Part shown: in pieces, positions 676 through 11,465 of the stretch
Position numbering within the stretch: the stretch's first letter is position 1
Layout of the letters: the number at the start of each line of letters is the position of its first letter
NCBI RefSeq assembly: GCF_004358325.1
Contig: NZ_CP037940.1
Span: 1 to 64,000, forward strand
DNA: 64,000 nt
Reading direction: 5' to 3'
Source: Periweissella cryptocerci
Lineage (GTDB): Bacteria > Bacillota > Bacilli > Lactobacillales > Lactobacillaceae
Position numbers and translations under genes: made by a program
The notes under the pieces: model-generated
Database searches by the model: none
What the model was told of the DNA's origin: nothing
What the model saw: only the letters and a program-made list of their open reading frames with translations

Positions 676-793
676 GGCTCCTCCTAGTCAGTCAGTGATT
701 GACTGTATAATTTATTTTCTTATCTTTCGTTTTCCCTAACTAATGTTATTATATGACCTTGATTAGGAAATGTAAAAGCATTAGGATTCTGTT

Positions 794-947
794 TCGTCTG
801 ACGTGGAATTATTGATTATCGCTAAACCCACAGTGACAAGGATTGTAGCATATTACCAGTTTGGTTGTCTGCTCAAATTAACGAAGAGACTGGTTCCAGC
901 CTCGTAGTGGGGATCAATCTGAGACACATATCCAAATTCCACGCTAG
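794..947 (-). repeat. R2: short-form dispersed palindromic element
   Basis: It is bounded by inverted ends TCGTCTGACGTGGAATT (794-810) and AAATTCCACGCTAG (934-947). Read on the minus strand it matches the 5661-6241 element nearly base for base: ATATGTGTCTCAGATTGAT, then GAGGCTGGAACCAGTCT, then CTTCGTTAATTTG. The roughly 170-nt structured domain present between CCAGTCT and CTTCGTTA in the long copy is missing here. A compact GAGGCTGG/CCAGTCTC hairpin remains. Confidence 0.75.
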
Positions 948-962
948 AAGAAATCTAGCCAT

Positions 963-1945: not shown

Positions 1946-2317
1946 TTACTTGGACAAGACTTTTTTGGCGACCCGTTCATCGCGAATCACGACCGTATCA
2001 TCAATTACACTGCTTTCAGACTTCAACGCAATATCGCCAAATGGCTTGATGTAAAGTTCCATATCTTGATCAAGGTATGCTTTTGAATACCCTTTAACTG
2101 GCCAAGCGCCCATTGTTGTGTCAATGGTGTCATCGAACCATTCCAAATATGGTTGATCCTTATCAATGATAATGATTACCATACTAATCATCATCGCAAT
2201 TTCCCCAACGTGCGAGTATGGCGATACCCCATCTTCATACAAAAACAGGATTCGTGAATTTTCATCTGTGTAGCGGGCAATTTCTTGTTGGACGCCTTCA
2301 TCAATTTTTAATTGCAT
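1946..2317 (-). CDS. HesB/FeS_biosyn-fold small protein, copy 1
   Basis: This 123-aa soluble acidic protein is paralogous to the 2519-2881 product. They share LKIDxGVQ at the start, TDENSRILFxYEDGVSPYS near residue 17, KDQPYLEWFD near 55, and the C-terminal IDDTVVIRDER. The pattern fits the iron-sulfur cluster biosynthesis family seen in lactobacilli, a HesB/IscA-like fold. It has no cysteine at all, so it cannot hold a cluster the way IscA does. Function is unknown. Its start has an AAGGTAGG site. No terminator was found directly after it. Confidence 0.55.
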   Translation of the reverse strand: MQLKIDEGVQQEIARYTDENSRILFLYEDGVSPYSHVGEIAMMISMVIIIIDKDQPYLEWFDDTIDTTMGAWPVKGYSKAYLDQDMELYIKPFGDIALKSESSVIDDTVVIRDERVAKKVLSK

Positions 2318-4005: not shown

Positions 4006-4105
4006 AAGAGACTCCTTTGATTTGTGTGATTTATTGCTAAATTCAATTATAAGCTAAAATACCAATTCGTGCACAAATAAATTCATGTTCACCGGTTTTC
4101 GGTAA

Positions 4106-4490
4106 TCCGTCTGACATAGAATTGGATGAAATTGGCCACTGCGTGCCAGTAAATTACTTGGTGCACCACGCTGGAAGCACATTGCCAAGCCGAAGTGCGG
4201 TCTTGGCAAACTCGGATAAGCTGGGAGTCTAAGGAATAAATTCCTAAGACTCCTCATCTCATCCTCAGCGAAAATATGTGCTTCACACATATTCCCCCAG
4301 TCGCGGTGTAAAGGCTGCGCCCGCCAAGTAATTTACCGGCACTCCGTTAGTTAGTAATTATTCTCAAACTAGTAAAAACGGTCGTAGTATGCAGATTCAA
4401 ACTGATTTTGTGATGTGCTCAAACTAGTGCCTAAGGTATAGTGAGTACGCTTAAACAAAAGTACAGAAATGAGAATCCATGTCAGACGGA
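4106..4490 (+). repeat. R3: complete long-form palindromic element with structured domain A
   Basis: Ends are perfect inverted repeats, TCCGTCTGACAT (4106-4117) and ATGTCAGACGGA (4479-4490). Inside lies domain A (4136-4351). It has a long helix GTGCCAGTAAATTACTTGG (4143-4161) with its near complement at 4324-4342, and a helix CACCACGCTGG (4164-4174) with CCAGTCGCGGTG (4297-4308). A small hairpin GCCAAG/CTTGGC (4184-4207) has loop CCGAAGTGCGGT. Two further hairpins are GGAGTCT/AGACTCC and AATATGTG/CACATATT. The right flank matches R1. A 78-codon frame overlapping it is not a gene. Confidence 0.85.
4136..4351 (+). ncRNA. Candidate structured RNA domain A
   Basis: This is the plus-strand structured core of R3. 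Landmarks shared with domain B in the same order are CCACTGCGTG, TGCACC, TGGAAGCACAT, the AAGCC..AG.GCGGTCTT hairpin loop, TCATCT, CCTCAGCGA, CGGTGTAAAG and CACTCCG. Between these landmarks the helices change sequence with compensating changes. Expression and function are unknown. Confidence 0.5.
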
Positions 4491-4503
4491 ATAACGTCCA
4501 AAT

Positions 4504-4537
4504 AAAAAGACAAACTCAGCGTCGAGTTTGTCTTTTT
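4504..4537. terminator. Bidirectional-type terminator after the LysR gene
   Basis: A perfect stem (AAAAAGACAAACTC with GAGTTTGTCTTTTT) lies just past the stop of the gene at 4543, with T-runs possible on both strands. Confidence 0.85.
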
Positions 4538-4542
4538 GGTGG

Positions 4543-5511
4543 TTACTTTTCAGCACTAATGCTTTCTAAACGAGTTAAGTAATCGGCTTCACCTAAGTAA
4601 GCGTCAAATTCGTTTAAGAAACTAATAATCCGTGGAATATCAATCTTATCTTTACGGTAGACGAATGATAAATCGAATTGAATGTTTGGTTCAAACGGAA
4701 CGGCCTTTACCTTGGTTGTAATGCTTTCCTTTTGACTTGAAAGGAATGACATTGGCAAGGCAGTATACGTTTCTGTTTGTTCAGCAAAACGGAAAATTTG
4801 GTTTGGTGTTGAGAAACGCGCCACTGAAGTTGGCACATCAATCAAGTGATTCTTGTATGTTTCGTGAATCGTTTGGTCAATGTAGTAGTTTTCAGGGTAT
4901 GTTACCCACTTAGCACCCAACGTATCCTTCAACTTAATTTTATCTTTATCAGCCAATTCAGGATTGTTGTGCACGAACATCAAATCTTCAGTCATAATCT
5001 TCTTTGATGCGTATGGCTTCCAGTTTTTGATTGATTCGTCAGGCAAGTACATAATTGCCAAATCAATGCGGTTGTTTTCTAAACGTTCCCAGATTTCCTT
5101 ACGGTTTAAAGTGTAGAATGTTACGCGAATATCTGGATGTTCCTTGTAGTATGTGGCAATAAAGTCTTCCAACACACGATCTTCAATTGATGAAAGTAAA
5201 CCAATTGAAATTTCACCTTGCGTAGCAGAAGTTGATTGTTGGATGGCATCGGTTGCTTTGTTCAAAACGGCGTAGATTTCGTGGGTCGCATTCAACATCG
5301 TCAAACCAGCATCAGTCATCCGTAACTTTTTACCGATTGAGTAGAAAAGTGGTGCACCAACTGTCCGTTCCAACTTTTTGATTTGTTGTGTCAAAGCTGG
5401 TTGCGTAATTCCGAGAATTTGTGAAGCTTGCGTGTAGTTCATTGTTTCCGCCAATTGGAGGAAATAGGTTAATGTCTTTGACGAAAAGATACTTTCTTGC
5501 GTCGTTTTCAT
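4543..5511 (-). CDS. LysR-family transcriptional regulator
   Basis: This 322-aa protein has an N-terminal winged helix-turn-helix (LTYFLQLAETMNYTQASQILGITQPALTQQIKKLE, residues about 14-48, quoted here only as landmarks). A periplasmic-binding-protein-like effector domain runs from about residue 95 to 300. It is expected to be a DNA-binding activator or repressor responding to a small metabolite. Neither neighbour (ppaC, parC) gives a clue to the regulon, and no divergent target gene is present. The start has an AAAGGAG site about 11 bases upstream. Confidence 0.85.
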   Translation of the reverse strand: MKTTQESIFSSKTLTYFLQLAETMNYTQASQILGITQPALTQQIKKLERTVGAPLFYSIGKKLRMTDAGLTMLNATHEIYAVLNKATDAIQQSTSATQGEISIGLLSSIEDRVLEDFIATYYKEHPDIRVTFYTLNRKEIWERLENNRIDLAIMYLPDESIKNWKPYASKKIMTEDLMFVHNNPELADKDKIKLKDTLGAKWVTYPENYYIDQTIHETYKNHLIDVPTSVARFSTPNQIFRFAEQTETYTALPMSFLSSQKESITTKVKAVPFEPNIQFDLSFVYRKDKIDIPRIISFLNEFDAYLGEADYLTRLESISAEK

Positions 5512-5705
5512 AATCGATAATGCTCCTTTATTACATTTGCTTATAGAATAATCATAATCATTAGCTAGGCATAATGCAAGAATTTTAACTTATTATTTAT
5601 AAATATTAATACCCTTTGCTAATACATGAGCAAACTTTAGCGTTTTTTGCCTCTACTTGGTCTTACGTGAAATTTGGATATGTGTCTCAGATTGATTCCC
5701 ACTAC

Positions 5706-5893
5706 GAGGCTGGAACCAGTCTGGACACCGTGATGGAAGACAAGCATTTGAAGCCACAGTGCGGTCTTCAAATGTTTGTGAAGCTTGGTTCGCTAACGCG
5801 GTAACCATCTTCACAAATCCATAATCAGTAACGAAACCCGTTACTGATTATGCCATCACGGTGCGAGCTAAAGTCCAGCCCGTTTCCAGCCTC
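5706..5893 (+). ncRNA. Candidate structured RNA domain C
   Basis: It is built like domains A and B: a closing stem, the CACC..TGG/CCA..GGTG helix followed by GGAAG, a hairpin with loop CCACAGTGCGGT (5754-5765), a long hairpin ATAATCAGTAACG/CGTTACTGATTAT, and a TAAAG segment after the second helix strand. Helix sequences differ from A and B but pairing is preserved. No promoter was recognised, so transcription is unproven. Confidence 0.5.
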
Positions 5894-5983
5894 TTCGTTA
5901 ATTTGCGTAGGTATTCTGACTAGTAATATGCCGTAATCCTTGTCGCTGCAAGTTTAGCGGTAATCAACAGTTCAACGCTTATC

Positions 5984-6198
5984 TAGCGGAGTGACTGAAA
6001 ATCACATTGTGGCCATGCTTTACACCGAAATGGGACGAACTTGACACCATGTGTCAGGTTTGTCGCTGAGGGTAGATGAGCAGTCTTTTGGCTTTAGCCA
6101 TTAGACTGCCAGCTATCCCGAATTGCCCAAGACCGCCCTTTGGCTTGGGCATGTGCTTCCATTTCGGTGCACAATGTGATTTTCAGTCACGCAGTGGC
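5984..6198 (-). ncRNA. Candidate structured RNA domain B
   Basis: This is the minus-strand core of R4. It has the same landmark order as domain A but different helix sequences: main arms ACTGAAAATCACATTG/CAATGTGATTTTCAGT, hairpin GCCCAAG/CTTGGGC with loop CCAAAGGGCGGT, GCAGTCT/AGACTGC, and TGACAC/GTGTCA. Expression and function are unknown. Confidence 0.5.
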
Positions 6199-6259
6199 AT
6201 CATACATCTGATCACATTTTATAAATTCCACGTCAGACGGAATAGGACCATTAATACAA

Positions 6260-6292
6260 AAGAGCTTTACCCCAATAATAAAGGTAAAGCTC
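6260..6292 (-). terminator. Terminator of the parE-parC unit
   Basis: A minus-strand stem (GGAGCTTTACC with GGGTAAAGCTC) is followed by TTTTG, a few bases after the parC stop codon. Confidence 0.8.
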
Positions 6293-6307
6293 CAATATCA
6301 AAATCAA

Positions 6308-11194: not shown

Positions 11195-11465
11195 GCCGTG
11201 GGATTGAGTAACATTGACCACTCCGTGCCAGTAAATTACTTGGCGCACCACGCTGGAAGCAACCGACCAAGCCAGTCTGTGCTTATGCCTGCGAATCGGC
11301 AACGCAAAACATCCCAGCATTTTGTTTCACAAAATACTGAATCTAATCCTAACGCGATTAGATTAGCCTTGCAGGCTGGATGTCTGTCTCAGATTGATTC
11401 CCACAACGTGTGTGGAACCAGTCTCTTCGTTAGTTTGAGCAAGTAATATGCCGTAATCCTTTTAG
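11195..11465 (+). repeat. R5: chimeric palindromic element
   Basis: The left part reads like domain A (CCACTCCGTGCCAGTAAATT, then CTTGGCGCACCACGCTGGAAGC). It continues into unrelated hairpins (CATTTTGT/ACAAAATA, ATCTAATC/GATTAGAT). It then switches to the R2/R4 type (TCTCAGATTGATTCCCAC, GTGTGGAACCAGTCTCTTCG, TAATATGCCGTAATCC) in its short form. The GCGGT loop is lost, so this copy looks recombined or decaying. The rest of the gap between parE and the next gene (10906-11564) shows no coding potential; two small frames there are repeat by-products. Confidence 0.65.

What the first reader, a model, noticed from the sequence alone, without database searches (positions are those of the whole stretch)
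4136..6198. Covarying, ornate structured domains in dispersed repeats: candidate new large structured RNA
Three domain copies (A 4136-4351 plus, C 5706-5893 plus, B 5984-6198 minus) share the same order of short conserved blocks but differ in helix sequence while keeping pairing. Main arm: CAGTAAATTACTTGG with its partner in A, ACTGAAAATCACATTG with CAATGTGATTTTCAGT in B. Second helix: CACCACGCTGG/CCAGTCGCGGTG in A, CACCGAAATGG/CCATTTCGGTG in B, CACCGTGATGG/CCATCACGGTG in C. Small hairpin: GCCAAG, CATTTGAAG or GCCCAAG arms, always enclosing a loop CC(G/A)(A/C)AG(T/G)GCGGT. Two more hairpins in A and B (GGAGTCT versus GCAGTCT; AATATGTG versus TGACAC) also covary. Conserved unpaired blocks are GGAAGCACAT, TCATCT, CCTCAGCGA and GTGTAAAG. 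Compensating changes with fixed loops are the mark of selection on structure. The copies are seen directly; an RNA role is inferred. I could not match it to a known family by eye.
Basis: partly seen in the sequence, partly recalled or inferred. Interest (0 to 1): 0.92.

Follow-up and report, generated by a model that had tools for sequence, protein, structure and literature searches.

The report
Transposon-borne, covarying folded module of lactobacilli
The three domains are copies of an intricately folded module, with no match in the RNA family library searched, that is scattered through many lactobacillus genomes and in this bacterium is carried by small parasitic DNA elements; what it does is not yet known.

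Summary
A, B and C fold far better than shuffles and share one plan, with changing arms and fixed loops. They lie inside two high-copy elements whose ends (GGCT…AGCC, 8-bp target duplications) match a 1.53-kb ISL3 insertion sequence in the same chromosome: ISL3-type MITEs by anatomy. The module is not part of that IS and occurs in many other genera. A hairpin pattern, then a covariance model (R2) built only from other genera, found it in 80 of 301 Lactobacillaceae genomes (own included; 12 of 40 genera) and, in a class-wide sample of 299, only in the own genome. Two genomes taken to be Levilactobacillus gave 142 and at least 150 matches. R2 also finds A, C and B in the window (E 1e-5 to 2e-4, rough). 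In 32 loci of other genera 32 of 46 pairs changed on both sides. The Rfam 15 scans gave no match to the module. No promoter enrichment was found and no transcript data were available, so RNA rather than single-stranded DNA, and any function, remain inferred.

The parts
4098..4499 (.). Element I (ends approximate): degenerate copy of an ISL3-type MITE carrying module A; both ends look like the IS right end (CCGTCTGACATAG ... CATGTCAGACGGAAT)
   Evidence: sequence, terminal inverted repeat I13, family ends; no target duplication seen at this copy
4136..4352 (-). R2 core match 4302-4168, E 1.4e-5
5649..6249 (.).
   Evidence: 8-bp target duplications at other copies (L043, L040, L048, L033, L038), not at this one
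5695..5905 (-). Module C. R2 core match 5863-5725, E 1.8e-5
5981..6205 (+). Module B. R2 core match 6070-6165, E 1.8e-4
4187..4204 (+). Conserved hairpin of A, AAGCCGAAGTGCGGTCTT as read on plus (AAGACCGCACTTCGGCTT on minus)
5751..5768 (+). Conserved hairpin of C, AAGCCACAGTGCGGTCTT as read on plus
11218..11287 (+).
785..960 (.). Small element (176 bp) with ends of the same family and no module match

Best explanation
The region holds two non-autonomous ISL3-type elements (MITEs) that carry copies of a 130-220-nt folded module of a Lactobacillaceae-wide family. Shown by the calls: the carrier's right end is identical to, and its left end similar to, the ends of an ISL3 insertion sequence in the same genome, with 8-bp target duplications; the module has a conserved multibranch fold with compensating changes; the family is widespread, high-copy in some genomes and without a match in the Rfam 15 scans made. 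Indicated, with moderate strength: selection on the fold differs between the strands and favours the complement of the strand first described. Inferred: the ISL3 transposase moves the elements in trans; the module acts as a folded single strand, most likely RNA made by read-through from neighbouring genes (as reported for some pneumococcal BOX repeats). In element II the two modules face outward on the inferred strand, so a transcript crossing it in either direction would contain one module in the functional orientation; this is my guess for the paired layout.
For: Carrier: 22 PF01610 matches; the 6 distinct IS copies whose ends were checked are 1530-1537 bp, each with a perfect 8-bp duplication, and the BLAST lines shown (list cut at 40) lie only in 18-33 bp at the IS ends; of 46 end-bounded units in 864 kb, 3 of them the IS, 13 have identical 8-bp flanks and 8 more agree in 7 of 8. 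Fold. Family: hairpin pattern in 9 of 395 Lactobacillales genomes, reversed control 0 in all; 114 stretches among 84,980 named genomes, of the 80 listed 79 bear lactobacillus names; R2 in 80 of 301 family genomes, own included, and in a class sample of 299 only in the own one; 142, 150 (the number scored) and 14 matches in three genomes. Layout: in the places listed for G560 and G529, 10 of 10 neighbours under 600 bp are divergent on that strand.
Against: No sigma-70-type promoter enrichment upstream on the inferred strand (4 of 92 against 14% in shuffles). No transcript data. Strand evidence is uneven: composition explains 3.0 of 4.9 kcal/mol of the folding difference in other genera and all of it in own C; a symmetric mismatch count gave p 0.11; counted by pair the alpha and beta sets are not significant (25:16, p 0.21; 20:13, p 0.30); tree counts have p 0.049 and 0.097 there; in own C unpaired sites lean the same way (14:11); outgoing changes on internal branches of own A were 9 A-C and 11 G-U. 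G-T is also milder than A-C in DNA (recalled), so single-stranded DNA is not excluded. Divergent pairing is not universal: tandem pairs occur in L222, L258 and L273 and in G589 and G545, and one convergent pair lies within 1000 bp in G560.
Confidence: 0.65

Rival explanations
1. The fold acts as single-stranded DNA, for example a hairpin recognised by an HuH (Y1) or other recombinase during replication or transposition, as in REP/REPIN elements.
For: Strand-specific selection would be expected too; L. brevis copies end sharply at the foot of the stem; Y1 transposase genes are present in the four g67 genomes tested, G529, G560, G275 and G353.
Against: No PF01797 match in the own genome, with 158 exact hairpin hits, nor in G558, with 14 model matches; here ISL3 ends explain the movement. 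By eye no constant tetranucleotide stands at the stem foot.
Confidence: 0.22
2. No function: DNA palindromes whose arms are kept matching by templated correction at hairpins or cruciforms while the elements spread.
For: Two-sided Watson-Crick changes occur in single own A copies (15 singleton types, beside 18 two-sided singleton types that are not Watson-Crick), as correction could give.
Against: Correction should treat both strands alike, but A-C and G-U counts differ by strand (with the weaknesses listed above); the plan and an 18-nt hairpin with fixed loop are kept in 12 genera; 25 of 32 rows have G-U at pair 116-122 and the other 7 G-C.
Confidence: 0.1
3. A member of a known large RNA family (ROOL, GOLLD, HEARO, OLE) or another Rfam family.
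For: Size and ornate look only.
Against: No match at gathering score in the window, none relevant at E up to 10 over 4050-6300, none to the module at E up to 1 in 20 loci of other genera or 20 loci of G560.
Confidence: 0.01

Closest known systems
ISL3-family insertion sequences and their MITEs
   Same: GGCT...AGCC ends, 8-bp target duplications, no own transposase, candidate mover in the same chromosome
   Different: carries a conserved folded module that, in other genera, occurs outside these ends
BOX, RUP and SPRITE repeats of pneumococcus (PMC3049150; abstract and passages seen)
   Same: dispersed, intergenic, predicted to fold as RNA; some BOX copies shown to be co-transcribed
   Different: this module is multibranched with a fixed hairpin loop and covaries across genera of another family; no transcript has been shown
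REP / REPIN elements (recalled; of PMC3733652 only the abstract start in a listing was seen)
   Same: single and inverted-pair copies of a stem-forming unit
   Different: about 190 nt with several helices; no Y1 transposase match in the own genome
Ornate large RNAs ROOL, GOLLD, OLE (PMC12286853, abstract start in a listing) and HEARO (recalled)
   Same: many helices with conserved loops
   Different: no Rfam match; shorter, far higher copy number, transposon-borne here

Membership tests
ISL3-type MITE (elements I and II) | Ends shared with an autonomous ISL3 element | tested here: met
   right end 100% over 22-23 bp, left end 82% over 33 bp in the best copies;
ISL3-type MITE (elements I and II) | 8-bp target duplication | tested here: met
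   13 of 46 end-bounded units exact, 8 more with 7 of 8; IS copies 6 of 6; not seen at the two window copies
ISL3-type MITE (elements I and II) | Mobilised in trans by that transposase | not testable with these tools
   needs a transposition assay
Known Rfam families, including ROOL, GOLLD, HEARO, OLE | Match to the family's covariance model | tested here: not met
BOX-like structured repeat | Dispersed, mostly intergenic copies with a conserved fold | tested here: met
   (2 of 83 groups inside a long ORF)
BOX-like structured repeat | boxA/boxB/boxC sequence | not tested
   no BOX sequence was compared
BOX-like structured repeat | Copies transcribed | not testable with these tools
   no RNA data available
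REP / REPIN with RAYT | Y1 (PF01797) transposase in the genome | tested here: not met
   0 in the own genome and in G558; present in the four g67 genomes tested
New structured RNA family | Covariation beyond chance in diverse species | tested here: met
   with shuffle and slide controls; no R-scape run
New structured RNA family | Strand preference expected of RNA | tested here: inconclusive
   favours the complement, moderate and uneven; single-stranded DNA would fit too
New structured RNA family | Own promoter or known transcript | tested here: not met
   no promoter-like enrichment; transcripts not testable

The most novel reading that the evidence does not exclude
A previously undescribed, Lactobacillaceae-specific class of ornate RNA that spreads as a mobile unit with exact ends, binds a host protein or RNA through its near-invariant hairpin (AAGACCGCMCUKYGGCUU on the inferred strand), and is picked up by unrelated transposons (ISL3-type here, another terminal repeat in L. 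brevis), often paired outward so that one functional copy is made whichever way the element is transcribed.
Probability: 0.33. Interest if true: 0.9.

Novelty: new variant of a known kind. Interest (0 to 1): 0.76.

Why it matters
Some lactobacilli, very probably including the food and beer species L. brevis, carry well over a hundred copies per genome of a highly folded, strongly covarying sequence for which the RNA library searched has no model. It links mobile DNA with structured nucleic acid, offers unusually deep natural covariation data for one fold, and its function can be tested in tractable food bacteria.

Tried and rejected
Rfam on the window, on 20 loci of other genera and on 20 loci of G560 gave no family for the module. 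Viral contigs gave 7 exact hairpin matches and the genome scan one 'Dinoroseobacter' match; by eye none sits in a module, and about that many viral matches are expected by my own rough estimate, which no tool computed. Two plasmid searches found nothing. The P4-like hairpin hits in G064 and G238 cover model positions 59-95 only and were not counted as family members. That the orientation bias comes from the module was dropped: 5 of the 6 checked IS copies share it in the frame of their ends, and the listed places in G560 and G529 show no two-arc bias (58 of 99, 352 of 400 shuffles as high; 34 of 51, 161 of 400). An own sigma-70 promoter was not supported. A constant GTAG-like tag at the stem foot was looked for by eye and not found. 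Ten paper searches were made, eight on such repeats or RNAs, one on orientation bias and one on the host genus; the listings show nothing that describes this module, and the library lacks most subscription papers. Lacto-int, a Lactobacillales/phage motif without an Rfam number in PMC2864571 (table passage seen), could not be compared because no sequence was in the passages.

Rows dropped before counts: near-identical copies were removed for the non-redundant counts and (43 alpha to 38, 45 beta to 33; six loci of neither subtype left out); A4 holds the 32 of 38 alpha rows with a core of 115-150 nt; one search used 70 of 73 full-length A copies (205 nt or more); A1 holds 36 of 37 own A and 7 of 10 own B copies, A3 20 A and 6 B of those; one search left out repeated flanks.

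Full report
Check of the observation. The repeat scan pairs A with B as a 125-nt inverted match of 77% and finds the main arms within A, B and C. Each folds far better than its 200 shuffles. Rfam 15 gives nothing in the 64-kb window at gathering score and two irrelevant matches at E up to 10 over 4050-6300.

What carries them. Searching the own genome (3.02 Mb, one contig) gave many copies of both surrounding elements; 40 candidates per query were scored, of 331 and 271. Oriented copies show ends near GGCTCTATTCCGTCTGACGTGGGATT or GGCTAAATTTTTTCTAGCGTGGAATT, several with 8-bp target duplications. PF01610 (DDE_Tnp_ISL3) has 22 matches. Seven loci with both ends were read, two of them the same copy: the 6 distinct copies are 1530-1537 bp with perfect 8-bp duplications. 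Their right end is identical to that of the elements over 22-23 bp, the left end is similar (82% over 33 bp), and the BLAST lines shown touch nothing else of the IS. Elements I and II are therefore MITEs of that IS by anatomy; movement in trans is inferred. In 864 kb, 46 end-bounded units were found, 3 of them the IS, with A alone, C alone, C plus B, B alone or no module match; 13 of 46 have identical 8-bp flanks. In 80 stretches (1.644 Mb, window included) there are 114 A-type, 48 B-type and 46 C-type matches, 73, 9 and 37 of full length; many B copies carry an insertion and fall out of the full-length count. The four other genomes of the genus have none by BLAST with A or by model R2.

Orientation. 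GC skew changes sign between 1.585 and 1.640 Mb, so the origin is placed near 1.6 Mb. Because A/B and C sit at opposite ends, this is one bias in the frame of the IS ends; 5 of the 6 checked IS copies share it. Of 75 grouped elements with genes on both sides 65 follow it (83 groups in all, 8 lacked a neighbour). An orientation bias tied to the sliding clamp is in print (title of Gomez et al. 2014 in the reference list of PMC4549789; that paper is not held). The places listed for G560 and G529 show no two-arc bias beyond shuffles, so the bias seems to belong to the carrier here, not to the module.

Covariation. In 70 own A copies the shared pair types changed on both sides are Watson-Crick in 32 cases and not in 3; among singletons 15 are and 18 are not, many of the latter from one degenerate copy. 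On A3 (20 A, 6 B; 25 distinct) 15 of 51 pairs change on both sides, against 3-7 when slid; the number of further pair types did not exceed shuffles. Model R1 from A3, which contains no C, finds most full-length C copies at about 46-57 bits; weaker matches on the opposite strand of A copies also appear, as expected of stem-rich sequence.

Other genera. R1 found only weak matches elsewhere among 246 Lactobacillales genomes: one over the whole model in G221 and hairpin-only ones in G064 and G238. The G221 locus has the same hairpin in a multibranch fold, which led to the pattern AAGCCRMAGKGCGGTCTT: 9 of 395 genomes, 158 hits in the own genome, reversed control 0 in all. A stricter pattern over 84,980 named genomes gave 114 stretches; of the 80 listed most are Levilactobacillus (brevis, parabrevis, hammesii, yonginensis, tongjiangensis and others), with Secundilactobacillus odoratitofui, Lactiplantibacillus fabifermentans, unnamed lactobacilli and one chance match in a MAG. 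In 32 non-redundant loci (A4) the core has 94.0% of cells paired, 32 of 46 pairs changed on both sides and a covariation score of 0.504, against 0.180 in shuffles and at most 0.101 when slid. Model R2 from A4 finds A (minus, E 1.4e-5), C (minus, 1.8e-5) and B (plus, 1.8e-4) in the window; 26 matches at E up to 1 in 20 own sources, calibration being short and E-values rough. R2 rings in 80 of 301 Lactobacillaceae genomes, own included, 12 of 40 genera, and in a class-wide sample of 299 only in the own genome; both searches used stricter filters that lose weak matches. Two g67 genomes gave 142 and 150 matches (150 is the number scored), a g6 genome 14. G560's contig length equals that of the record CP032931.1, L. 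brevis CD0817, so I take G560 to be that strain and g67 to be Levilactobacillus. In 23 modules from 20 G560 loci identity per 20 columns is 0.74-0.86 inside and 0.38-0.66 outside, with edges at the foot of P1. Some other L. brevis copies lie in composite elements: of 11 loci, a terminal repeat like ACTAAAGGTTGCAAG was found on both sides in three and on one side in some others.

Which strand. Composition explains part: elsewhere 3.0 of 4.9 kcal/mol, leaving an excess in 41 of 59 (p 0.006); own A 7.2 of 16.8; own C all of it. A symmetric mismatch count elsewhere was weak (A-C 52.5, G-U 35, p 0.11), strong in the related own copies. Tree-based counts give A-C over G-U in four sets (101:74, p 0.049; 55:38, p 0.097; 111:45; 23:7, p 0.005); unpaired sites lean the other way per base in three sets and the same way in own C. 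An earlier count in own A gave 9 A-C and 11 G-U outgoing changes on internal branches. On A4, oriented to the complement, 43 pairs that fold from either strand have 61 G-U and 14 A-C cells; rows 25 to 4; pairs 18 to 5 (p 0.011); pair 116-122, G-U in 25 of 32, is not among them. I conclude, with moderate confidence, that a single strand is selected, on the complement.

Function. Among the listed G560 and G529 places, neighbours under 600 bp are divergent on that strand in 10 of 10, and one convergent pair lies within 1000 bp; element II has the same layout. Tandem pairs occur elsewhere (L222, L258, L273; G589, G545). No promoter-like enrichment upstream was found (the window scan is at chance). 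I therefore favour read-through RNA, as in pneumococcal BOX repeats, some of which are co-transcribed with operons (PMC3049150, abstract and passages), with single-stranded DNA as the main rival. PF01797 is absent from the own genome and G558 and present in the four g67 genomes tested.

Literature. The eight searches on such repeats and RNAs list no description of the module. PMC2864571 (passages) names Lactobacillales motifs; those with Rfam numbers should be covered by the Rfam scans. PMC2267715 (passages) lists one family in L. johnsonii, Lac-1, located in genes. The host is probably Periweissella cryptocerci: five species in the genus (passage of PMC10745875), a chromosome record for that species (passage of PMC10758620), and five genomes held of which the window's is the single-contig one; this is inference.

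Noticed in passing
own genome, MITEs as in window 4098-4499 and 5649-6249, and IS copies: Strong orientation bias of the MITEs (A 91 of 114, B 46 of 48, C 45 of 46 in the sampled half; 5 of 6 checked IS copies) with respect to replication.
   Followed up: partly
L074, L076, L077, L079, L082, L085: 1.53-kb ISL3 copies with two unlike ends and perfect 8-bp duplications.
   Followed up: partly
L173, L174 (G238, G064): A hairpin CTCTAAGGGATGAATCCCTAAGAG (G238) very like the P4 arm of A, in what looks like another stem-rich unit; four matches in each genome of another family.
   Followed up: no
L375:42-270: T-box leader match (below gathering score, E 1.3e-12) about 130 bp from a module in the genome taken to be L. 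brevis.
   Followed up: no
window 1946-2317 and 2519-2881: Tandem paralogous small ORFs (75-79% identical DNA) of about 120 aa.
   Followed up: no
own genome against G001-G004: This genome (3.0 Mb) is about 1 Mb larger than the four others of its genus, in which the element was not found.
   Followed up: no
L219, L254, L271 (both sides); L238, L242, L245 (one side): L. brevis modules flanked by terminal repeats like ACTAAAGGTTGCAAGTTTAAAAG; mover unknown.
   Followed up: partly
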